NCBI RefSeq assembly: GCF_900209925.1
Contig: NZ_LT907978.1
Span: forward strand, 2,079,001 to 2,143,000
Direction: 5' to 3'
Length of the DNA stretch: 64,000 bases
Source of the DNA: Anaerobutyricum hallii
GTDB taxonomy: Bacteria; Bacillota; Clostridia; Lachnospirales; Lachnospiraceae
The notes under the pieces are model-generated. The model made no database searches. It had not been told where the DNA came from and saw only the letters and a program-made list of their open reading frames with translations. Shown here piece by piece: positions 3,071 to 60,165 of the stretch. Position 1 is the first letter of the stretch. Each line of letters starts with the position of its first letter. The position numbers and the translations under genes were made by a program.

Positions 3071-3131
3071 TTCAAGAATACCAAGGCATTCTTACTGCGA
3101 GGTGTGTGTCATGTAAGGCATGACCTATTCT
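3071..3131. repeat. Dispersed palindromic intergenic repeat, copy 1 (family A)
   Basis: An imperfect palindrome (3071-3093, AAGAATACC/GGCATTCTT) is joined to CTGCGAGG and to a second small hairpin GTCATG...CATGAC. The same module recurs at 12497-12530 and, inverted, at 39981-40010, with a core-only copy at 35580-35605. See the finding on family A. Confidence 0.6.
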
Positions 3132-3168
3132 TCTATAACTTTAAAACATCCTTCTTCAAATATCCAGA

Positions 3169-3831
3169 CTAATTATCTTTTTCAAATTTATCCATATTTT
3201 CGGTTTTTCCAATTACTACAATAATATCATTATGTTTAAAGCGATAATCCGGCATAATTTCAATATTCGTTTCCGAATTATTTTCTAAAGCGATAATATT
3301 TAATTGATACTTCCGACGGATTTCTGATTCCTGCACACTTTTGCCGATCAGATTTTTCCCAACCGGAATCTGACGGATTTCTATATTGTTACTTAAAGAA
3401 ACAAAATCAAGGAAATTATCCGATATTAATTTTTTCCCAAGGCGAAGTGCCATATCACGTTCCGGATAGACTACCTCTGCGCCAAGCTTCTTTAATACTG
3501 CTCCCTGCTCTTCACTTGTCGCTTTGGCAATAACATGCGGCACGCCAAGTTCTAATGCAGACATTGTTGTTAAAATACTGACATCGACTTTTTCTCCAAT
3601 ACAGATAATTGCAACATCGCAGTTCTGGATTCCTGTTTCTCTTAACGTATCGATTCCCAGACTTTCTGCTACAAACGCATAATCCGTATAACGACGGATA
3701 TTTTTAATCTTTTCTTCACTTCTGTCAACTGCGATTACTTCTTTTCCTGCCTGTGCAAGGGCAATGGCAAGTGCTGTTCCAAAACGTCCAAGTCCAATCA
3801 CTCCATAAGCTGTTCCACGCTTCTTTTTCAT
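3169..3831 (-). CDS. trkA: TrkA/KtrA-type potassium channel regulator
   Basis: Cytoplasmic RCK-domain subunit that gates the partner TrkH/KtrB channel through NAD(H) or adenine nucleotide binding. The Rossmann motif GLGRFG lies near residue 13, followed by AVDRSEEK (acidic residue ending strand 2), and a C-terminal TrkA_C domain (about 140-220) ending VVIGKTENMDKF. At 220 aa it has the single-RCK size of KtrA. The start at 3831 has AAAGGA 7 nt upstream; an in-frame TTG at 3855 overlapping trkH is the alternative. Directly downstream of trkH in one operon. Confidence 0.92.
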   Translation of the reverse strand: MKKKRGTAYGVIGLGRFGTALAIALAQAGKEVIAVDRSEEKIKNIRRYTDYAFVAESLGIDTLRETGIQNCDVAIICIGEKVDVSILTTMSALELGVPHVIAKATSEEQGAVLKKLGAEVVYPERDMALRLGKKLISDNFLDFVSLSNNIEIRQIPVGKNLIGKSVQESEIRRKYQLNIIALENNSETNIEIMPDYRFKHNDIIVVIGKTENMDKFEKDN

Positions 3832-24957: not shown

Positions 24958-27900
24958 TTATTTTACCTTGATTTTAAAGGTTGCTTTTTTTCCGCTTCCG
25001 TCGGTTGCCATAGCGGTAATCTTTATAGCTTTTCCTTTGGCGGTCTTTTTAGTTTTGACTACACCTTTGGCATTAACAGTGGCATATTTTGTGTTGGAGG
25101 ATGTCCACTGTAACTTTTTATTCGCTTTCTTTGTAGCAGTTACGTTGGCTTTTAATTTTAAGCTTTTTCCTGCTTTAACAGTTTTCGCTCCTGTAATTTT
25201 CACCTTCTTTACGATTCCTTTCATGGAAGTTACTTTCCAGGATGCGGAAACTCTGCTGCCATCAGTCGCCGTTGCCGTAATCGTTACCTTTTTCCCTCCG
25301 GTTTTCTTTTTCACTGTTACAACACCATTTGCATTTACTGTCGCTACTTTTGGATTTGAGGAAGTCCAGATTATCCTTTTGTTCGTTGCTGTATTTGGAT
25401 AAACTGCAGCTTTTAAAGTAACTTTCTTTCCCTGCGCAATCTGCTTGGAAATTCCGGCAATTTGAATAGAATTTACTTTTATCTGGCGATTTGAAATATC
25501 GTTTGGTTTATCTGTATTGTCATCTTTCTTGGAATCGTCTGGTTTCGGTTTGTCTGTAGTATCATCCTTCTTGGAATCATCCGGGTTTGGTTTGTCTGTG
25601 TTATCATCCTTCTTGGAATCATCCGGGTTTGGTTTGCCTGGATTAACCGGCTTAGTTTTATTCCATGAGAATTCCAGATATCCTGTATTATCTGCAGTTT
25701 CCTGCTCTTCTTCTTTTGGTGTGACAACACAAATTAAAGATGCCGTTCCCTCTTCTCCTTCTAACACATTTTCAGGAATGGTATACGTCTTTATAACTGT
25801 TTCTCCTACAGCTAATGCCGAACCTTCACCAGTATAAATCGGTGTATCTTCTTCTGAATTAAGATAAAATGCAATGGACAAACCTGTAATTGCTTCATAT
25901 CCAGTATTCTTCATTGTAACTGCAACCTGGTTATTCTCTTTTTGTTCTACATTTGCAATCTGTATATTGGCATAACCATAAGTTGTAGAGCAACTGTTGT
26001 TTGTTGTATCTGCCTCATGATAAGAAGGTGTTACTGTCAAAGTTACTTTTGTTTTTTGTATGCTTGCTGGTAAATGAGCAGTTACTGTACATTCTTTTTC
26101 TTCTCCAGATGCTATATTTTCAGATACTTCACCTGAATAGAGGACATTTTCCTTCTCATCCTTTATTACTGCCTCAAAAGAATTCATTTCTTTTTGGCTG
26201 TTATTTAAAACAGAGAAAGCAAAGTCGGCATTTCCATCTGGAACAATTTTATCGGAATCATAAGCAAGGTACTCCCCACAGATAAGGTCTGCATAGCTAT
26301 CTAAAGTATCTACTTTTAATGTACCTTTATCAAACTGCACACCGTCTTTTGTAACGTCTAAAAGATTCTGGGCAGCCATTACATTTCCTTCTTCATCTAA
26401 AGAAATGCTCATGCTTCTTATGTAGGAATTATCGTCTGAAATCTGAACAGATTCTCCCCAATTGGACTCACTGCCTTTTACCATCCAGAGTGTCTGCTTT
26501 CCACTCTCATCTACCTGACGATAGACAATTATATAAGAATCTCCATTCTTCACTACTTCGTAATCACTCAGGTTCAGTGAACATTCGCCTTCCTCTTTTC
26601 TTGTGGCAAGATCCCAGTAACAGATTCCATCTTCTTTTGTCGCAAATAATTGACCATCTGCAATTTTTAAATTAGAAAATTCTTCATCCGTAGAAATTGA
26701 TTTTACATCTCCTGATCCGGTCGATACATAAATTTTGCCGATATCATCATCAGAACTTGTTTCTTTCCACGCCATGTATCTGCCATCTTTACTCATTACG
26801 AAATCAGATACGGTATCTGTAGTATATCGGATAGATTCCTTATCAACAACACCGCCGCCCACATCTTCTACTCTGTAAATAGAATTACTTCCTTCTGACA
26901 GGAAATAGGAATTTTCTGTGTTTTCTACCCACGCATAGCATAACTGATCCTCATTACCCCCAACACTATACATCATTTCATATACGGAATTTGTATTACC
27001 ACTTCCCATATAATCTTCTTCTGTTTTTAATTTATCTGGAAAAGAAAAGTTTTCTCCGTCAAATTCCGCAGTATATAAATCCATCTGACGTAATGTATCA
27101 TCCAAGGTATCTTCTGCATACACCTGTCCATTTGAACGTGAAAATACAATATTTACCTTTCCGTTATTCTCCACTGCTGAAACACTGCCGCAAAGACAGC
27201 CTCCATCCTCAAGAAGCTTTGGCTCGCCCCAGCTTTGGCCATCATATACACAGTAATAGATGGCAACATTATTCTTCTTATCTTTTTCTGGATTATCATC
27301 GTTCCAAATTAAAAGCTTTTTACCATTAGTGAAAGAAATAAGCTGCGGTGCACTATTTGGAAAACAATTTTCCTTTTCAAAGGTTCCATCCAATGCGTAT
27401 GCCTGGATACTATTCTCTGTATCCTTTAGATAAGAACGGTCTGTTAACGTCATCTCCGACTCATCAATTACGCTTTTGGCACGCTTTTGTATACTGCGCA
27501 TCTTTGCCTTGCTCTGTGCCGGATAGAATTGATAATCTCCGAAATCATGTTTTAAATTATCTTCTGTCAAATCATAGTTAAGTACAGCAATATTAATTTT
27601 TGCCGTCAGATTTCCGGTAACTTCCAGAGAATCTTCCAAAGATGCTACAGGGAACTTCAGTTTGGAGTTCATCTTTCCAGTTAATGTACCTTCTGCATAA
27701 GTTCCGCCTCTCTTACTTCCAATTCCAATCGCACCTTCTAATGTACCATTAATTGCAAGACTTCCAGAAAATACAAACTGCTTTGCATTGTTGTATTTCA
27801 GTTCGAGATTACCTGCACTGTCAACTCCTACTCCTATTCTTGTATATACCGCTGAAAACGGTGGGTTCCAGTGGAATGTATAATCTGCGCCAGTCTTCAT

Positions 27901-28242
27901 CTCTGTCACGATTCCACCTTTGGAAAATACTGGTTTCCCACTTCCACAGGAAAATTCTAAATATCCTGCTACAGACGCACTTGCCTTAAGGCCAAGACTT
28001 GCATTCTGTTTTTTCAGCTTTCCTCGCAGTTTCGAATAGTCGTTCCAAAGTTTGGTTGTAGTTACTTTTTTACCCGTTGCATCCTGATAGAGATTCTTTA
28101 CTTTCCTGTAGGATTCACTCCAATACGCTGTTTTATTGCCATCAGGACCGATTACCGCACTATCATCCATCTTTTTAAAACCGATCAGAACTTCCACAGT
28201 TTTATTTTCTTTATTATAAACTGCCTGCACAGAATCCCCCAC
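24958..28242 (-). pseudogene. Large cell-surface protein with propeller-like, CARDB-like and Big_2 domains; N-terminus missing
   Basis: The open frame gives 1094 aa from a GTG at 28242, but there is no signal peptide, no ribosome site and no ATG. An in-frame stop lies about 50 nt upstream, so the true N-terminus is lost. Residues 1-250 are beta-rich, 280-680 have propeller-like repeats (SISTDEEFSNL, WGESVQISDD), 690-890 resemble CARDB domains, 895-945 are tandem 14-residue repeats (KPNPDDSKKDDNTD), and 960-1094 hold two Big_2 domains (WTSSNPKVATVNANGVV and WTSSNTKYATVNAKGVV). An integrase gene abuts the broken end, so insertion of the mobile element probably caused the loss. Whether a short form is made is unknown. 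Confidence 0.7.
25501..25639 (-). repeat. Tandem 42-bp coding repeat (about three units)
   Basis: Three copies of a 42-bp unit encode KPxPDDSKKDDxTD, a charged, Pro-rich wall-spanning linker in the surface protein. Confidence 0.85.
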
Positions 28243-28397: not shown

Positions 28398-29657
28398 TCA
28401 CATAATGCCTATTAAGCTTTCATAATCAATTGCCGGACTCTGTTCAATTTTATTTTCCAGAAAGTTTCCTACTCTCATTGCCTCCTTCTGTTTGATGTCA
28501 TCCAACACATGTGTATAAGAAACTGTAGTGTTATAATTTGCGTGTCCCATTATCTCCTGGACAGTTCTCGGTGACATACCCTTTTCAAAACATCTTGTAG
28601 CAAAAGTATGTCTTAAAGCATGAGGATGAATCCCTTCGATATGACGTGGAACCTCTCCTGTATATTGCGCCTCTACACGAAACATTTCATTAATCTGCTT
28701 TGTGATACTTCGCAATATGCTTTCTAAATTATGTCGTCCAACAGGAGATCCAAGCGATGTTAAAAAGACAAGATCACCAAATTCTTCTGGTTGCCGCCAT
28801 ACATTTTTCTTTTCTTGCCGTCTACTATTGATTTTTTCATGTTGTCGTTCAAGAACAGCTTGTGTTTCCCCAAAAAATGGGACTTTCCTGACGGAATTTT
28901 CTGTTTTGGGAGTAGTTATTTTCAGCGTTTTTGCACCATTTATATACTCATAAGTTAGACTTCTTTTAACATATATAAATTTATGTACAAAATCTATATC
29001 ATCCCATCGTAGAGCACTTGCTTCCCCAACTCTCAAACCTGTAAGCAGAAGGAACTGACACATTTCCTGATACCAATGGTTCTGACTCTTCAGATATTCC
29101 AGAAAAATTTCCTGTTCTTCAACAGACAACACTCGTCTTTCAACTGTTTCACATTTCGGTATTACTACTCCAAGAACAGGATTAATTGTCATTAAACCAT
29201 TGGCAATAGCAGCCTCGACGCAGCTCTGGAAAATACCCGTAGCTTCTCTAATCGATTTTGAAGATCTGCCACATTCAATCATATCAGCAATTGCAGTCTG
29301 AACATGAATCTGTCTGATATCAATCAAAGGTTTTGTTCCAATACGAACGCCATAATAATTAACAAATTTTCTCTTATATGAAGGGGAACCTCCATTTTTT
29401 AATATTGGAGCTTTATATTTAGAATACCACTCTTCAAACCATTCATTTAATGTGATATATTTTCCAATACCATTCTTTGATAAATTGTCTCTTTTGACTT
29501 CGTCAATAGCAATTGCCAAATTCTTTTTGAGATTTTTTAATTTCCAGTCATATAGAACGATGGACTTACCTTCAACTTGTGCACGTCCCATATATCTGCC
29601 ATCCGGTCGCTGAGTTATGCCTCTCCCTAATTCCTTACCATTTAAGCTTTTACCCAT
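28398..29657 (-). CDS. int: Tyrosine recombinase (Tn916-type integrase)
   Basis: Catalyses site-specific insertion and excision. The 419-aa protein has an N-terminal arm-binding domain (GRGITQRPDGRYMGRAQVEG), a SAM-like core-binding domain (about 70-170) and the catalytic domain with Arg in LLTGLRVGEASALRWDDID (about 207), HALRHTFATRCFEKG (HxxR) and the nucleophile in YNTTVSYTHV. All catalytic residues are present, so it could be active. The ribosome site is AAAGGATGCAAT. Confidence 0.94.
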   Translation of the reverse strand: MGKSLNGKELGRGITQRPDGRYMGRAQVEGKSIVLYDWKLKNLKKNLAIAIDEVKRDNLSKNGIGKYITLNEWFEEWYSKYKAPILKNGGSPSYKRKFVNYYGVRIGTKPLIDIRQIHVQTAIADMIECGRSSKSIREATGIFQSCVEAAIANGLMTINPVLGVVIPKCETVERRVLSVEEQEIFLEYLKSQNHWYQEMCQFLLLTGLRVGEASALRWDDIDFVHKFIYVKRSLTYEYINGAKTLKITTPKTENSVRKVPFFGETQAVLERQHEKINSRRQEKKNVWRQPEEFGDLVFLTSLGSPVGRHNLESILRSITKQINEMFRVEAQYTGEVPRHIEGIHPHALRHTFATRCFEKGMSPRTVQEIMGHANYNTTVSYTHVLDDIKQKEAMRVGNFLENKIEQSPAIDYESLIGIM

Positions 29658-29741: not shown

Positions 29742-29960
29742 CTATTTATGTTTCTTTAAATCTGATGTTCTCCCGTTTGGAAATTCTAAATTAGTATAGA
29801 AATCTCTCATACCAGAATTCTTTTCAAAAGTTTCCAAACTCATGATTACCATATCTCCATATCCGTTTTTTGTAATAAACACCGGCTCATCTGAACTATG
29901 GCACATTTCTGATATTTCACTTGTATTTCTAAGTTCCCTAACTGGTATTATTTTTGGCAT
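29742..29960 (-). CDS. Phd/YefM-family antitoxin without an adjacent toxin
   Basis: A 72-aa protein starting MPKIIPVRELRNTSEISEMC, followed by EPVFITKNGYGDMVIMSLETFE, which is the Phd/YefM fold (DNA-binding N-terminus, toxin-wrapping C-terminus). The ATG at 29960 follows GGAGATGGGAAA. No RelE/Doc-type toxin gene follows; integrase begins 85 nt downstream. The C-terminal 20 residues (MRDFYTNLEFPNGRTSDLKK) differ from usual family tails. Confidence 0.8.
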   Translation of the reverse strand: MPKIIPVRELRNTSEISEMCHSSDEPVFITKNGYGDMVIMSLETFEKNSGMRDFYTNLEFPNGRTSDLKKHK

Positions 29961-30060
29961 TTTCCCATCTCCTTTCATAATCATTGTAGCACAATCATGA
30001 CGCAATAACAAGCAATATCATTTCATTAGTCATAGATATTTTTCATTGATCAATACTAAT

Positions 30061-30255
30061 TTACATAGTTAATCCATATTTTGCATTTTTCTTCAATTCT
30101 TCATCAAACAATTCTTTATGAATAAAAACTCTTCGGCCTATCCTGACAACATATTTACAGCATGGATTCGATATCAATTCTCTTGCTTTTGTCTTTCCAA
30201 TTCCAACATAATTACAAAATTCTTCAAAAGACAATAATGTTTTTTCACACTCCAT
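30061..30255 (-). CDS. xis: Excisionase (Tn916 Xis-like)
   Basis: A 64-aa winged-helix recombination directionality factor: LLSFEEFCNYVGIGKTKARELI, then KYVVRIGRRVFIHKELFDEELKK. The ATG at 30255 follows GAGGAGTACAA; the longer frame from 30324 lacks support. Directs the neighbouring integrase toward excision. Confidence 0.88.
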   Translation of the reverse strand: MECEKTLLSFEEFCNYVGIGKTKARELISNPCCKYVVRIGRRVFIHKELFDEELKKNAKYGLTM

Positions 30256-30324
30256 TTGTACTCCTCTTTTCCAATCATAATTATAACAAATATTCCTTTC
30301 TATCAATAGAATAATCCCCTGCAA

Positions 30325-30680
30325 GCGGCCATCGGGTATAGCCCCATTGGAATTGCACCATCTTTTTCAGACCGGTCATTTGCCGGAAGTATCATTATCA
30401 AAAGCAGCATCTTCGCCACAGAGTTCCCAACCTCTGACTGTAATGAAATATTTCTCGCTCTTACCTTTACTTCAATGTTGTTTCTTACAAACATTTCATC
30501 GCATGAATCCATTTTCAACTTGCTTTGTAACATTTTGTTGGAAAATTAACCTGAACAGATAATCATGGCGTATTTATTACACGGCTCAACTACTTCACAC
30601 GTACTTGCAGGAATTCCATATTAAATTATCAAGGTTCAAAATATTTCAGATATTTGAAAAGGGAATAAATCTAAAACATG
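30325..30680. other. Gap with no supported gene
   Basis: A 76-codon minus-strand frame (30303-30533) exists here but has no ribosome site and no recognisable family, and another frame looks equally protein-like. Probably decayed element sequence. Confidence 0.4.
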
Positions 30681-30926
30681 CTATGCTATCTTAAAATCCA
30701 AAACCTTTGTAATCAGTTTTGTTTCAAGGTGTCTGCGAAGTATCTCGTCGATACAAAAATGAATCTGTCCATACTCATCATACATTTTCCGAATTGATAA
30801 TCTGATTATGTATCCCTCATAATGATCCACGACCGTGTTGATTGCTTCCACATCACCATCTGATGCTGCCTTTATTATATAGAAAGGCAACAGATCAGCT
30901 TTTTTCACTTGATTCTTTTTTTCCAT
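30681..30926 (-). CDS. HTH_16-type regulator (Tn916 Orf8-like)
   Basis: An 81-aa protein with the pattern LLPFYIIKAASDGDVEAINTVVDHYEGYI...EILRRHLETKLITKVLDFKIA, found in Tn916 Orf8 and relatives. Overlaps the end of the sigma-like gene by 32 nt, so the two are translationally coupled. Regulates expression of transfer or excision genes by family knowledge. Confidence 0.88.
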   Translation of the reverse strand: MEKKNQVKKADLLPFYIIKAASDGDVEAINTVVDHYEGYIIRLSIRKMYDEYGQIHFCIDEILRRHLETKLITKVLDFKIA

Positions 30927-31522: not shown

Positions 31523-31607
31523 GAAAAGAGATTCAGTTATAAATTATATCAATATTGATCCAAAAGTAAATATATTTTTTATAAAAGTATGTGCTTTTCT
31601 ACAATAA

Positions 31608-31659
31608 AAAAATCCTCGTATAGATAACTACTTAAACGTATCTATACGGGGATTTTTTA
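31608..31659 (-). terminator. Strong bidirectional terminator just after the CRISPR-like array
   Basis: Arms AATCC.CGTATAGATA and TATCTATACG.GGATT with A- and T-runs on both sides. On the minus strand it follows the last degenerate repeat by about 8 nt, closing the array transcription unit. Confidence 0.85.
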
Positions 31660-31666
31660 TATATTC

Positions 31667-31837
31667 ACGCCTATTCTGTTTTTTCTTCCAAAGTGTGGTT
31701 CCGAGAGTGCTCGTCTATATTCAGAAATGGATGTTTTAGACTCCGGTTTTTCGGCCAGGGTGTAGTCCCTCAGGCCGGTCAAATCGTAGGTTGAATCTAT
31801 GGTTTTAGACCCCGGTTTTTCGGCCAGAGTGTAGTCC
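31667..31837 (-). CRISPR. Orphan mini-CRISPR array, repeat resembles type VI-D (Cas13d)
   Basis: Read on the minus strand: a 36-nt repeat (31837-31802), a 33-nt spacer (31801-31769), a 36-nt repeat (31768-31733, two differences), a 30-nt spacer (31732-31703) and a degenerate third repeat (about 31702-31668). The repeat begins GGACTACAC, holds a short stem (CTCTGG with CCGGGG) around an A-rich loop, and ends GGGGTCTAAAAC. From memory, the Eubacterium siraeum Cas13d repeat is also 36 nt, begins GAACTACACC and ends GGGGTCTAAAAC. The decayed terminal repeat is typical of the leader-distal end. A promoter lies upstream and a terminator downstream. No cas13d gene is present. The alternative is a chance repeat inside mobile-element DNA. 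Confidence 0.7.
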
Positions 31838-31862
31838 AAAAAAATCAGATTTAAGAACAAAT

Positions 31863-31970
31863 CTCCGACTGAGATAAACGCTCCGCGAGGATGCGCAGTG
31901 ATTCTGTAAAGAATATGTCAGCTTACGCTGACCAGAATCACGCGCCAAGTCTCGCGGTTGCTCGACTTGA
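31863..31970. repeat. Structured palindromic element in the array leader (related to family A)
   Basis: Contains paired segments GTGATTCTG/CAGAATCAC, GTCAGC.TTAC/GCTGAC and CAAGTC/GACTTG. Its base order parallels 39905-40012 (CTCCGACT, GATAAA, TATGTCA.GCT.ACGC, ending in CTCGC), so it looks like another diverged member of the dispersed palindrome family. Confidence 0.45.
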
Positions 31971-32007
31971 ATATTATTTTTTTAATATCCAAATGTTTTT
32001 TAGTTAT

Positions 32008-32036
32008 ATTGTAAATCACCTATAATATTCTGTCAA
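32008..32036 (-). promoter_or_regulatory. Sigma-A promoter reading into the CRISPR-like array
   Basis: On the minus strand TTGACA (32031-32036), 17 nt, then TACAAT (32008-32013). It is the best promoter match in this gap and points at the array about 170 nt away, with no ORF between. Confidence 0.65.
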
Positions 32037-32232
32037 TTTACAACTCCCACTACGGACGATTTCTATTCTTCAGATAAACTTCGCAACTCTGGAAAAGTCT
32101 TTTTTCTTTTCTCTGATACAATATTTATAAAACATAACCTGTGTATTGGTGTATGATATTTATAATAAAATCTACAGCCACTGACTGCACATGTACTGAC
32201 AACACCCATAAAAACTACAGAAAGGAGAGATT

Positions 32233-33054
32233 GTGAATAAAAATAATTCTTTAGAAATAATAGAAGATTGTACCACCTACATTAAAACTCATCTTCAATA
32301 CCCATTAACAGCAGAAGCTCTGGCTTCCCGCTATGGTTACTCTCTTTATCATTTCTGCCACATTTTTAAAATCTGCTGTGATATGTCACCGGGAAAATAC
32401 ATACGCCTTCTCCGTTTGGAAAAAGCAAAAAAGGATATTTTATCTGGAATGAGCATCACACAGGCCGGATTTGATAATGGCTTTGAAACCAGTTCTGGTT
32501 TTTCTAAAGCATTTCGTAAAGAATATGGTATTAGTGCACGAGAATATTTAAAACAAAATAAAGAAAGTGAGGTCTTTATTATGCTACACGTTGAAATTAA
32601 AACATTACAGTCTCAGATAGCGCTTGGGTATGAGATTCCCGGCGAATATGACAGTGATTATAGCAAATCTGGTGCTTATTGGAATCACATTAATTTTAAA
32701 GAATACCCTGCCTATCCAGAAGGAATCCATGATTATGGCGAAGTTGGTCTATGGATTCATCCCGATCATATCAGCGGTGAATTACACTATTTCTTTGGCT
32801 TTTTAACTGACTCTACAGAAATTCCAGATGGTTTCCATAAGGTGGAGATTCCTGCCGGACGATATGCAGTTTTTACAATTAAATCACAGGAAACTCCTGA
32901 AAAAACAGCGGATGCTGTACGGGATGGCTGGCGTTACGTCTTTACCGAATGGCTCTGTACGCAAAAAGAGTATAAAATATCACATCAGGGGATGTGTTTT
33001 GAATGTTATCAGGGAGAAGAAGCATATCTTTATCTGCCAGTGACTGATTTGTAG
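32233..33054 (+). CDS. AraC-family regulator with GyrI-like ligand domain
   Basis: A 273-aa DNA-binding regulator. Residues 8-110 form a two-HTH AraC domain (YPLTAEALASRYGYSLYHFCHIFK, then SITQAGFDNGFETSSGFSKAFRKEYGISAREY). Residues 120-272 resemble the GyrI/BmrR effector domain (KVEIPAGRYAVFTIKS is the typical GxYAVF strand). The start is a GTG at 32233 with AAAGGAGAG upstream; a TTG two bases earlier is out of frame. Likely senses a small molecule. No divergent target gene is adjacent. Confidence 0.88.
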   Translation: MNKNNSLEIIEDCTTYIKTHLQYPLTAEALASRYGYSLYHFCHIFKICCDMSPGKYIRLLRLEKAKKDILSGMSITQAGFDNGFETSSGFSKAFRKEYGISAREYLKQNKESEVFIMLHVEIKTLQSQIALGYEIPGEYDSDYSKSGAYWNHINFKEYPAYPEGIHDYGEVGLWIHPDHISGELHYFFGFLTDSTEIPDGFHKVEIPAGRYAVFTIKSQETPEKTADAVRDGWRYVFTEWLCTQKEYKISHQGMCFECYQGEEAYLYLPVTDL

Positions 33055-33126
33055 ATTTGGTAATAGACGAAAAAAGAAAAAAATAATACATCCCATCTGC
33101 TCTGTAGTCGCTGTGTTTATGAGAGC

Positions 33127-37708: not shown

Positions 37709-37769
37709 TTTTAAGGTTCTTATTAAAGATTTGCAAAATCGGGATTACATTCCCATACCTCGCAGATCA

Positions 37770-37895
37770 GACAACGGATCATAGTAAGGTACTCTGACTT
37801 ATGGCGCAAAACCACTTACAGTTGCGGGACAGTACAGGACTTTCACCTGTTTCCCCTTATGGAACATGAATTGCTTCACGTTCTATGATCCAACA
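37770..37895 (-). promoter_or_regulatory. Cobalamin riboswitch 1
   Basis: On the minus strand: closing stem CTATGATCC/GGATCATAG in DNA (37883-37891 with 37776-37784), conserved core GGGAAACAGGTGAAAGTCC, then CTGTCCCGCAACTGTAA, and a 3' AAGTCAGAGTACC box. This is the Cbl aptamer pattern. It precedes the lipoprotein gene. The rest of the 37479-37989 gap has no gene. Confidence 0.93.
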
Positions 37896-37989
37896 ATATG
37901 TAATTAAACAATTTTCGATGGTTTACAAAGCCACACCAAAAAATTGACCTACAGGTCAATTATATACCTGTTTTTTTCCAATGTCAATC

Positions 37990-41133: not shown

Positions 41134-42879
41134 TTAGGCGTTTGCGAAACGCCACAAGTCGCATAAATACGTCATTTTTTTGTTGTTAAAAATAAAAATC
41201 TCCTCACGGTTTGTGATATAATGGAGTTGACTAGAAACCATAAATCACGCCCCGAAAGGAGATATGTCTATGATACCACAAAAACAACTCTCTTTGGCAG
41301 ATATTTTTGAAGATTGTAAAGATATTTATGAATCTGACAAACCTCATTTCCTTACTCTGCTCGAAAATCACATTGACCTTGATAAAATTATTCCGACTTC
41401 TTTTTACAAGCATTACTACGCATCCACTGGAAGAAATCGTAAATATCCTTTGCATGCAATGCTTTGGGCTTTGATTATTCAACGCCTCTTTTCTATTCCA
41501 ACAGATTCCCTCCTGTTAATCTTCCTTCATTATTCCAGACATCTGAGGGAATTCTGTGGCTTTACTAAAGTTCCTGACGCTTCAAAAATCACTCGTTTCA
41601 AACAGGATTTTTTAATGGACTTACAATCAGTTTTTGATAATCTCGTAGATATCACAGAACCAATCTGCCAGGACATTAACGGTAATCTCGCCTCTATGCT
41701 TTTGTTTGATACTTCAGGGATTAAAGCATATGTGACTGAAAACAATCCCAAATACGCCAACCGCATTATTAAACAGCTTAAGTCCTATGCTAAAGCTCAT
41801 AACTTCGATGATTCTTATGATCCTTACAAGGCAGCCTATGCCTCTATGCCTGCATCCGCCGCTGCTAACCATGAAGTAAAGCAACAGTATGTGAATGGTC
41901 ATTTCTGCTATGCTTATAAATTTGGCATTACGACCAATGGACTTGGCATTGTTCGCTCCATTGATTTTTATAACAAGGATTATCTGGATTCTCACCCTGA
42001 CATCATTGTTGAAAAGAAATCAAAATCTCCCGATGAAGATAAATCACTTGCCGATTCGAAAGCCTTGATTCCAACCCTTAAAGATTTCAAAGAACGGCAC
42101 CCTCTTATCAATCCCAAGATATTTCTTGGTGATGCTGCCTTTGATACGATTGAAATCTACAAATCCTTATTTGAAGATTTTAAATTTCAAAAAGCATTTA
42201 TTCCTTTAAAGGTAAAACTTTCACTGGATAACGTGGATTATACATTCAATGAAAATGGTATTCCCTGCTGTCCTCATGATCCTTCACTCCCTATGAAACG
42301 GGAAGGTAGCAAGTCTCACTTAAGAAGTAATCTTCCGACCATGAAATTTGTGTGTCCCAAAATGAAACGGGAATACAATCGTGAAGACAAATCAAAACGA
42401 CGGGTGTGCCACTGCGATAATCCATGTACAACTTCTTCCTGTGGCAGAATGATTTACGTTTATCCCGAAAAAAACCTTAGAGCATACCCCGGCGTGGAGC
42501 GTGGCTCACAGGAATGGGATGACACTTACAAAATCCGAGTAAATGTTGAAAAATCAATCAACCACTTTAAAGACAGTTTTTGTGTCGCTAACCGAAAAAC
42601 AACAAACGAAAAAACACTTCATGCAGATTTACTTCTTGCTGGTATATCACAGTTATTAACTGTAGTTGTTGCCGACAAAATCCATCAACGACAATACATC
42701 AGAAGTTTAAAATCTTTCATAGCCTAGGACTTACCAACTCCATAAAGCCGAGGGCTTATTAAAGTGCGCCTAAAATGTCCGGTTATCCACTTTTTATTCC
42801 AGGATTCGTGCTAAGCACGAATCCTTCCCTGTTTAAGTTCAAGATTGCGAACGAGCATCGCGAGTTTCGCAATTACCTA
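41134..42879 (+). mobile_element. Insertion sequence copy 1 (DDE_Tnp_1/IS1182-like), about 1.75 kb
   Basis: Ends: left TTAGGCGTTTGCGAAACGCC, right (complement) GTAGGTAATTGCGAAAC, imperfect inverted repeats sharing TTGCGAAAC. The 3' part holds two hairpins (GGATTCGTGC/GCACGAATCC and GCGA.ACGAGC types). Flanked by the 10-bp CTATAGTAAT. Nearly identical to copy 2. Confidence 0.82.
41270..42727 (+). CDS. DDE transposase, copy 1
   Basis: A 485-aa transposase with a DUF772-type N-terminus (PLHAMLWALIIQRLFSIPTD), catalytic Asp in LLFDTSGIKAY (near residue 147) and IFLGDAAFDT, a Cys/His-rich insertion (CPHDP, CHCDNPCTTSSCGRM) and Glu in NVEKSINHFKDSFCVANRKT. It is intact and likely active. The start at 41270 matches copy 2; the ATG two codons earlier is absent there. 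GGAG upstream. Confidence 0.9.
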   Translation: MIPQKQLSLADIFEDCKDIYESDKPHFLTLLENHIDLDKIIPTSFYKHYYASTGRNRKYPLHAMLWALIIQRLFSIPTDSLLLIFLHYSRHLREFCGFTKVPDASKITRFKQDFLMDLQSVFDNLVDITEPICQDINGNLASMLLFDTSGIKAYVTENNPKYANRIIKQLKSYAKAHNFDDSYDPYKAAYASMPASAAANHEVKQQYVNGHFCYAYKFGITTNGLGIVRSIDFYNKDYLDSHPDIIVEKKSKSPDEDKSLADSKALIPTLKDFKERHPLINPKIFLGDAAFDTIEIYKSLFEDFKFQKAFIPLKVKLSLDNVDYTFNENGIPCCPHDPSLPMKREGSKSHLRSNLPTMKFVCPKMKREYNREDKSKRRVCHCDNPCTTSSCGRMIYVYPEKNLRAYPGVERGSQEWDDTYKIRVNVEKSINHFKDSFCVANRKTTNEKTLHADLLLAGISQLLTVVVADKIHQRQYIRSLKSFIA

Positions 42880-59499: not shown

Positions 59500-59907
59500 A
59501 TCTACCCGAAAAAATACTGTTACCAGTTGCTTTATAACAAGAGAATTGCTCTCTTTTGTATACTTTATTAATGATCTTTTGAATTTTACATTAATGTACT
59601 TTTTATGCTTTTCTGCATTTTTTTCACATAAAAATGTTACAAAATAAAAAGCATTACTATCTGCTTTCTCTATTCGATTACCAATATACACCCAATATTT
59701 CTATTGTCTTCTGTATTGTTCCCACATCGTCATGCGGAAACAATACAGGACTCATTGACAATTCAGGATGATATTGAGCCTAAAAAGTAAACGCTTACTA
59801 TTATTTTTTTACATATCTGCTTTAATCTGGAAGAAGGAAGATAAACATAAAAGAAAGTAAAGAAATGCCTTCCTGCCTCTTCCCAAAGCAACGGACTGTC
59901 TGTCATA
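59500..59907. other. Leader region after riboswitch 2, no gene supported
   Basis: AT-rich. A minus-strand frame at 59485-59691 has no ribosome site or family. Otherwise nothing recognised. Confidence 0.4.
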
Positions 59908-60074
59908 AAAAGTATCCTGGCTTCGCTTCATTCATGAATCAGCCCCTTCCCGGATCTATCTCCAGTGGTTATGGTTTTTGACACCATTTGCTGATTTTCG
60001 TCTGCTTCACAGTAGGGGTAAGCCTGCTCCGGATTTTCACCGGATTCCTTCCTTTGACGCAAGATATATACTTA
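59908..60074 (-). promoter_or_regulatory. Cobalamin riboswitch 2
   Basis: On the minus strand: P1 AAGTAT (60068-60073) with ATACTT (59910-59915), core GGAATCCGGTGAAAATCCGG, then CTTACCCCTACTGTGAAGC and the 3' box GAAGCCAGGATAC. A near-consensus cobalamin aptamer. It follows the 571-aa regulator and now faces only gene remnants. Confidence 0.94.
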
Positions 60075-60165
60075 TTATTTATATACTAATATTATCGCAC
60101 CATTTCATACAAATCAACAAATATTATGTTCGAATCCGGGCGATTAATCTGGAAATCATTACCAT

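What the first reader, a model, noticed from the sequence alone, without database searches (positions are those of the whole stretch)
31608..32036. Orphan CRISPR-like mini-array with a type VI-D (Cas13d)-like repeat, in its own transcription unit
Seen: two 36-nt repeats with two differences, spaced by 33 nt, and a third decayed repeat after a 30-nt spacer. On the minus strand the repeat starts GGACTACAC, contains a small stem with an A-rich loop, and ends GGGGTCTAAAAC. A TTGACA-17-TACAAT promoter lies upstream and a strong terminator directly follows the last repeat. Known (from memory): Cas13d direct repeats are 36 nt, often begin GAACTACACC and end GGGGTCTAAAAC, and VI-D spacers are near 30 nt. 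Inference: a Cas13d-type guide RNA locus is kept without cas13d, either as a relic, as guides used in trans, or as an anti-CRISPR or regulatory RNA beside a mobile element.
Basis: partly seen in the sequence, partly recalled or inferred. Interest (0 to 1): 0.88.

Follow-up and report, generated by a model that had tools for sequence, protein, structure and literature searches.

The report
Severed stump of a Cas13d CRISPR array
A short piece of an RNA-targeting (Cas13d-type) CRISPR array sits in a bacterial genome in which no Cas13d gene was found, most likely the leftover tail of a CRISPR locus cut off by a DNA rearrangement rather than a working system.

Summary
On the minus strand lie two 36-nt repeats (31837-31802, 31768-31733; 2 differences), a 33-nt and a 30-nt spacer, a degenerate third repeat and a hairpin. 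A covariance model built from other genomes' VI-D repeats ranks these two first in the window (E 0.0016, 0.0026; next 6.1). Six of seven other genomes with the repeat pattern carry Cas13d. The host genome (one contig, 99.91% complete) gives no Cas13d match; its three cas1 loci are type I-C (two) and RT-Cas1 type III, with other repeats. Among family genomes 0 of 368 match Cas13d and 1 of 397, this one, has the repeat.

The "decayed" third repeat looks like the ordinary end of a VI-D array. And from 31860 upstream the DNA is a duplicated segment ending in a truncated dispersed element; it supplies the promoter. In an intact VI-D locus cas13d-cas1-cas2-leader lie on that side.

Best reading (0.7): a severed 3' stump of a VI-D locus, perhaps still transcribed, idle without Cas13d. 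No protospacer was found. Working in trans, or as an RNA anti-CRISPR, is not excluded.

The parts
31802..31837 (-). CRISPR repeat R1 (36 nt, type VI-D); stem kept (U10-G27 wobble); 3' UCUAAAAC intact
   Evidence: repeat; model E 0.0016; pairs; fold
31769..31801 (-). spacer 1, 33 nt
   Evidence: no target
31733..31768 (-). CRISPR repeat R2 (36 nt); A at position 27 leaves a C10/A27 mismatch in the stem; 3' UCUAAAAC intact
   Evidence: (E 0.0026, mismatch marked)
31703..31732 (-). spacer 2, 30 nt
   Evidence: no target
31667..31702 (-). degenerate terminal repeat R3: 5' half recognisable, 3' half lost
   Evidence: 402 of 20000 shuffles as good; similar ends in other VI-D arrays
31607..31658 (.). 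hairpin with flanking A/T runs, probable terminator
   Evidence: inverted repeat I1 (20 nt, 95%); not listed by the scan
31838..31859 (-). 22-nt remnant between junction and R1: rest of a leader or of a cut spacer (undecided)
   Evidence: sequence
31860..31972 (-). truncated copy of a dispersed, structured element (begins ATTCAAG; the last 72 nt of the intact 185-nt copy are missing)
   Evidence: the missing part is not elsewhere in the window
31860..33122 (.). segment with a second copy at G000:C1:2216198-2217446 (94%); its edge at 31860 is the junction with the array side
32008..32036 (-). promoter-like site TTGACA-17-TACAAT; both hexamers also present in the second copy
32233..33054 (+). 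AraC-family regulator with effector-binding domain, lies in the duplicated segment
   Evidence: second copy in L033
33215..34360 (+). IS256-family transposase just outside the duplicated segment
30895..31353 (-). sigma-70 region-4 protein, part of an integrative-element tail
30681..30926 (-). HTH_16 protein of the same tail
30061..30324 (-). excisionase (Tn916-Xis)
28398..29657 (-). tyrosine integrase

Best explanation
It is the severed 3' stump of a type VI-D (Cas13d) CRISPR-Cas locus. Shown: two VI-D-type repeats, two spacers, a degenerate terminal repeat like those of other VI-D arrays and a terminator-like hairpin remain, and the side where cas13d, cas1, cas2 and the leader lie in an intact locus is taken, from 22 nt before the first repeat, by a duplicated AraC-gene segment that ends in a truncated dispersed element. 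Inferred: a rearrangement at that element cut the array from its effector; the neighbouring integrative-element tail suggests it came in on mobile DNA; the promoter of the duplicated segment may now read through the stump and give an unprocessed RNA of about 400 nt. Without Cas13d nothing found in this genome is known to mature or use it, so it is most likely idle and drifting slowly. It would regain a function only if a compatible Cas13d entered the cell.
For: VI-D identity: the window repeats are hits 1 and 2 of a model built from other genomes; with the window repeats included, 93.6% of cells pair and the covariation score is 0.198 (4 and 0 of 500 shuffles as high). Genomes with the pattern carry Cas13d: 6 of 6, 0 of 1. 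Orphan state: no Cas13d in G000 at E<=10 while the same search finds it in the other six. Gene order in an intact locus, L072: cas13d-cas1-cas2-array. The last copy keeps the 5' part and loses or alters the TCTAAAAC end in 4 of 5 arrays looked at; the fifth has one change. In three VI-D loci a TTGACA with a second hexamer 17 nt on stands 35-36 nt before the first repeat; here 170 nt, with the element between. The homology to the second genomic copy stops at 31860. Each repeat carries one private change at a column fixed in the 18 other repeats.
Against: Both repeats keep the U(-8) to C(-1) handle that UrCas13d needs (PMC6559982, passages), and R1 keeps its stem, so decay is slight. The promoter hexamers are unchanged in both copies of the duplicated segment, which would suit a kept transcription unit. 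Two of the five measures are not outstanding (pairs changed on both sides: 94 of 500 shuffles as high; further pair types: 17 of 500), and pair 14-23 is unpaired in 7 of 20 repeats. The breakpoint was inferred by comparison with the second copy of the neighbour segment, not with an unbroken version of this very locus; none was found. The second hexamer of the L060 leader (TAAGCT) is poor. The link to an integrative element rests on neighbourhood only.
Confidence: 0.7

Rival explanations
1. Mobile guide cassette: the mini-array is cargo of the neighbouring integrative element and arms the Cas13d of a future host against rival phages or elements, as archaeal virus mini-arrays do with host Cas proteins.
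For: Two spacers only, terminator-like hairpin, promoter-like site, next to integrase-xis-sigma genes. Mini-arrays on viruses that use host CRISPR systems are known (PMC11656645, passages).
Against: No spacer target in phages, plasmids, viral contigs or 397 family genomes within the limits. Related element tails in 14 other family genomes align over the sigma/HTH_16 side; no listed row reaches the hairpin or the array. No Cas13d match in 368 of 368 family genomes, so likely hosts are not equipped. The promoter-like site lies in the duplicated AraC segment, not among the element genes.
Confidence: 0.12
2. RNA anti-CRISPR or anti-cas orphan array: repeat RNA that soaks up an incoming Cas13d, or guides that attack an incoming VI-D system, keep that system out.
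For: Repeats with an intact handle and no Cas13d. RNA anti-CRISPRs made of solitary repeats exist for other types (PMC10651486, passages), and orphan I-F arrays can act against their own cas genes (PMC8616872, passages).
Against: Neither spacer matches the fetched VI-D loci better than shuffled spacers (20 of 33 and 20 of 30; 12 shuffles each reach up to 22 and 20). The survey of solitary repeats found none of type VI. Repeat found in this genome only among 397 family and 24 genus genomes.
Confidence: 0.07
3. Guides for another effector of this cell: the I-C or type III machinery processes or uses the RNA.
For: The genome has two I-C loci and a type III locus with RT-Cas1 and a CARF-HEPN protein.
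Against: Their repeats (32, 33 and 29 nt, delimited by eye) share neither sequence nor ends with this one; the VI-D model finds nothing in those three loci at E<=10.
Confidence: 0.04
4. Not a CRISPR array: two chance or unrelated repeats.
For: Only two clear copies; the third is weak.
Against: 36 nt at 94% with array spacing, model hits far above the rest of the window, and the ends of a known Cas13d handle.
Confidence: 0.02

Closest known systems
Type VI-D CRISPR arrays (Cas13d), e.g. that of contig L072 (JAAYOH010000050.1) and the EsCas13d handle
   Same: 36-nt repeat, ACTACAC near the start, GTCTAAAAC end, stem at positions 8-14/23-29, spacers near 30 nt (29-37 nt), degenerate terminal repeat
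   Different: No Cas13d match in the genome and no cas1 within 36 kb (cas2 was not searched on its own); G13 and C24 unlike all 18 other repeats; promoter-like site 170 nt away behind another element
Orphan CRISPR arrays and viral mini-arrays
   Same: Few spacers, no cas genes beside them (PMC11656645 and PMC8616872, passages)
   Different: Viral mini-arrays share repeats with their hosts' systems; here none of the three systems found in the genome has this repeat
RNA anti-CRISPRs (Racrs)
   Same: Cas-free repeat with a promoter-like site upstream
   Different: Racrs are solitary repeats on viruses or plasmids and none of type VI was reported (PMC10651486, passages); this one has two full repeats and spacers

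Membership tests
Type VI-D CRISPR array (repeat type) | Repeat matches VI-D repeats in sequence and stem | tested here: met
   (E 0.0016 and 0.0026, next 6.1; E-values rough by the tool's own word); caution: the 19 repeats of the model were fetched with a pattern that fixes columns 3-10 and 26-36
Type VI-D CRISPR array (repeat type) | The repeat goes with Cas13d in other genomes | tested here: met
   6 of 7 genomes, one of the six a partial gene; in 4 of the 6 on the same contig as a repeat; the seventh, a MAG, has none
Type VI-D CRISPR array (repeat type) | Spacers near 30 nt | tested here: met
   33 and 30 nt; other loci 29-37 nt
Complete VI-D CRISPR-Cas system | cas13d in the genome | tested here: not met
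   none at E<=10 in a one-contig genome; the same search found it in six other genomes
Complete VI-D CRISPR-Cas system | cas1/cas2 beside the array (only in a subset of VI-D loci, PMC12669027, passage) | tested here: not met
   three cas1 genes over the cut-off in the genome, the nearest 36.9 kb away, each in a I-C or type III locus
Functional mini-array / guides in trans | Spacers match mobile elements | tested here: inconclusive
   no match, but collections are partial, viral seeds had to be exact, and at most two candidates per genome were scored
RNA anti-CRISPR (Racr) | Inhibits a cognate Cas protein | not testable with these tools
   needs a bench test
RNA anti-CRISPR (Racr) | Solitary repeat on a virus or plasmid | tested here: not met
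   two full repeats with spacers; region has no match in phages or plasmids
Transcribed unit | RNA from the region | not testable with these tools
   no RNA data

The most novel reading that the evidence does not exclude
A type VI mini-array that lives without Cas13d on purpose: re-promoted by the AraC-linked segment, it supplies decoy repeats or guides that block or hijack any Cas13d arriving by conjugation. It would be the first type VI case known to me of an RNA anti-CRISPR or guides-in-trans locus (the survey in PMC10651486 found no solitary repeats of type VI).
Probability: 0.1. Interest if true: 0.8.

Novelty: new member of a known kind. Interest (0 to 1): 0.36.

Why it matters
It shows VI-D array DNA in a bacterial family where no sampled genome gave a Cas13d match (0 of 368), so VI-D loci seem to have travelled further than their effector shows. 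It is a clear example of a CRISPR locus cut apart at a dispersed element and put behind another promoter. If the RNA proved active it would open type VI RNA anti-CRISPRs, which a broad survey did not find.

Tried and rejected
Rfam: no family covers the array or the structured stretch upstream (below gathering scores, mostly at the hairpin).

Structured 'leader' as a CRISPR-specific RNA: rejected, because its homologs lie in unrelated places in other genomes that have no VI-D repeat; 53 of 397 genomes have a match to the 441-nt query; three of the listed rows lie outside the element part, several are short, and at most two candidates per genome were scored.

Simple insertion of array plus integrase module into the dispersed element: not supported, since the missing 72 nt of the element are nowhere in the window (best 35 of 72).

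Spacer targets: phages, plasmids, viral contigs by exact half-spacer seeds (48-51; extended best 23 of 33 and 23 of 30; a target with mismatches in both halves would be missed), 397 family genomes (46), own and VI-D loci held (90), window (25, 91). Best hits are at chance level. A scan of the whole own genome for spacers with mismatches was not done (rejected, cap then used for other questions).

Viral contigs with the VI-D pattern: 2 contigs, one copy each of the same 36-mer and no second repeat, taken as chance. Structure of the DUF3800-like neighbour protein: machine busy three times.

Full report
WHAT IS THERE. The minus strand of 31837-31607 holds, in order, a 36-nt repeat R1, a 33-nt spacer, a 36-nt repeat R2, a 30-nt spacer, a degenerate repeat R3 and a long hairpin. 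R1 and R2 differ at two positions, 10 and 27. Position 10-27 is a C-G pair in the 18 other repeats of alignment A2: R1 has U-G, which still pairs, R2 has C/A, which does not. So each has moved one step from the same ancestor. (A degenerate last copy in L058 also has T at position 10.)

IS IT VI-D? I scanned the genome-contig collection with a loose pattern: seven bases plus a pyrimidine at one end, eleven at the other, 15 free bases between. Nine stretches matched; by their record names they come from seven genomes. I aligned 19 repeat copies from them (18 distinct), without the window, and built a covariance model. In the window with filters off, R1 and R2 are the two best hits (28.3 and 27.1 bits, E 0.0016 and 0.0026); the third has E 6.1. 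The model's own members in other loci score higher, mostly near 50 bits. Caveat: the pattern itself fixes columns 3-10 and 26-36, so agreement there is partly built in. The independent part is what those genomes contain. A PADLOC Cas13d profile found Cas13d in six of six of them in one search (E 2.8e-42 to 6.7e-273) and not in the seventh, G425, a metagenome-assembled genome: 6 of 7. One of the six (G399) has only a partial gene near a contig end. In four of the six a repeat lies on the same contig as the gene. Repeats with the same first bases (GGACTACAC) are those of L056/L063, L058 and L060. L072, the full contig behind L056, is a whole locus: Cas13d of 953 aa (E 1.1e-253), cas1, cas2, promoter-like site, array. 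A review table prints the EsCas13d handle as AACTACACCCGTGCAAAAATGCAGGGGTCTAAAAC (PMC8869480, passages and table row seen); the window's repeats share both ends with it. UrCas13d needs U(-8) to C(-1) of the repeat (PMC6559982, passages); both window repeats keep UCUAAAAC.

IS IT AN ORPHAN? The window's genome is one contig of 3,515,670 bases, 99.91% complete. It has no Cas13d match at E<=10 and no further copy of the repeat with up to 3 mismatches. It has three cas1 genes over the cut-off and one weak match below it. PADLOC profiles show a I-C locus with Cas3, Cas5, Cas7 and Cas8c (L143, whose array lies 7-9 kb before the window), a second I-C locus with Cas5c, Cas7c and Cas8c in which a transposase gene stands between cas5 and a cas3 part (L142), and a type III locus with a reverse transcriptase-Cas1 fusion, a III-D type Cas7 and a CARF-HEPN protein (L144). 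Loci without cas1 were not looked for. Their repeats are of other kinds and the VI-D model finds nothing in the three. In the same family 0 of 368 genomes, this one included, match Cas13d and only this one of 397 has the repeat pattern; in the genus 1 of 24, again this one. The family is not named by the tools.

THE 3' END IS NORMAL. In arrays of L058, L074, L073 and L057 the last copy keeps its 5' part and loses or alters the TCTAAAAC end; in L073 and L057 a hairpin with a T run is part of it or follows (by eye); in L055 the last copy has one change (five arrays looked at; L059, L061 and L062 not looked at, L056 runs off its contig). R3 followed by the hairpin at 31658-31607 is similar anatomy. 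The likeness of R3 to R1 alone is weak (402 of 20000 shuffles as good).

THE 5' END IS NOT. In L072, L058 and L060 a TTGACA with a second hexamer 17 nt on (TAAAAT, TATAAT, TAAGCT) stands 36, 36 and 35 nt before the first repeat. Here that distance is 170 nt. The stretch 31860-31972 is a copy of a structured, dispersed element: 53 of 397 family genomes match the 441-nt region at E<=0.001, nearly all in this part, in unrelated surroundings, and none of the others has the VI-D repeat. The intact copy is 185 nt long and goes on for 72 nt more, down to ...CTGAGATAAA. The whole stretch 31860-33122, with promoter-like site and an AraC-family gene, has a second copy at G000:C1:2216198-2217446 (94%), where the element is intact. 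Homology ends at 31860. So the array side was joined to this segment inside the element, 22 nt before R1. Those 22 nt may be the last of a leader or of a cut spacer. In the intact locus L072 the cas genes and leader are what lies there. The element copy differs from its second copy at 2 of 120 aligned sites, the DNA between it and the gene at 22 of 241, the gene at 36 of 822; the two repeats have 2 changes in 72 sites. That would fit drift since the duplication, but the numbers are small.

SURROUNDINGS. On the other side lie a sigma-like gene, an HTH_16 gene, an excisionase and a tyrosine integrase, which I read (from recall) as the tail of a Tn916-like element. Related tails in 14 other family genomes align over the sigma and HTH_16 genes, at most up to window position about 31475; no listed row reaches the hairpin or the array. 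An IS256 transposase gene lies just past 33122. The region is a mosaic. Whether the array rode on the integrative element is not shown.

TARGETS. Spacer 1 has no match in phages and chance-level ones in plasmids; spacer 2 has chance-level ones in both. Exact half-spacer seeds hit 31 viral stretches, none extending beyond 23 of 33 or 23 of 30 bases. In 397 family genomes the best match other than the array itself is 25 nt at 92%, E 0.0016 for one genome (at most two candidates per genome scored). Against the VI-D loci held, cas genes included, the spacers do no better than shuffles, which speaks against an anti-cas role but does not exclude it.

HOW IT MOST LIKELY WORKS. In this cell, not at all: a transcript from the adopted promoter may exist, but Cas13d both matures and uses these RNAs (PMC6559982, passages) and it was not found. 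I put 0.7 on a severed stump. The alternatives are listed with their refuters.

LITERATURE. Searches for orphan or mini arrays of type VI listed no paper whose title or abstract start tells of a VI-D case; only listings were judged there, apart from passages of PMC8616872. The RNA anti-CRISPR survey states that solitary repeats were found for all types except type VI (PMC10651486, passages). The library is open-licence only, so absence from it proves little.

One search recounted the promoter distances, element length and distances to cas1; one search tested two transposase genes and a cas3 part that I had named by eye.

Noticed in passing
L058:1024-3078 (+) and L063:2068-4365 (-): A large protein (685 and 766 aa) that begins DLY[I/L]DESG[R/K]FE follows the VI-D array in two different genomes; the two are homologous (22% identity, E 9e-13) with weak TPR hits. 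By eye it resembles the TPR+DUF3800 protein reported with Cas12a2 (PMC10910872, passages), and DUF3800 is reported for some VI-F and V-A2 loci (PMC12669027, passage); no Pfam DUF3800 hit at E<=10. It could be an accessory of Cas13d.
   Followed up: partly
window 31860-31972; intact copy in L033 (minus strand, about 3127-3311); 36 copies aligned: A dispersed structured element of 185 bp (starts ATTCAAG, ends CTGAGATAAA; the window copy folds with z -4.6) occurs in unrelated places in tens of family genomes and matches no Rfam family; looks like a small non-autonomous mobile element or mobile ncRNA.
   Followed up: partly
L073:2563-2660 (G399, MAG SUG1417): A one-spacer VI-D mini-array whose terminal repeat has turned into a terminator-like hairpin (GGACTACACCCC...GGGGTGTAGTTTTTTT).
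   Followed up: partly
L061 (G425, MAG RUG10756): A VI-D array with five repeats matching the pattern in a MAG without a detectable Cas13d: incomplete assembly or a second orphan.
   Followed up: no
L142 (G000:C1:1774000-1793000): Second I-C locus: a DUF772/DDE transposase gene, 486 of 487 residues identical to that of window 41264-42727, stands between cas5 and a cas3 part; five array repeats seen.
   Followed up: partly
window 24958-28242 (-): 1094-aa Big_2/CARDB protein whose reading frame starts right after a stop beside the integrase gene; perhaps the gene into which the integrative element went.
   Followed up: no
window 30344-30398 (-): Rfam pemK RNA motif (47.3 bits) between the excisionase and HTH_16 genes; a Phd/YefM-type antitoxin gene lies at 29742-30011, other small ORFs there were not searched. 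Also two cobalamin riboswitches at 37766-37902 and 59890-60091.
   Followed up: no
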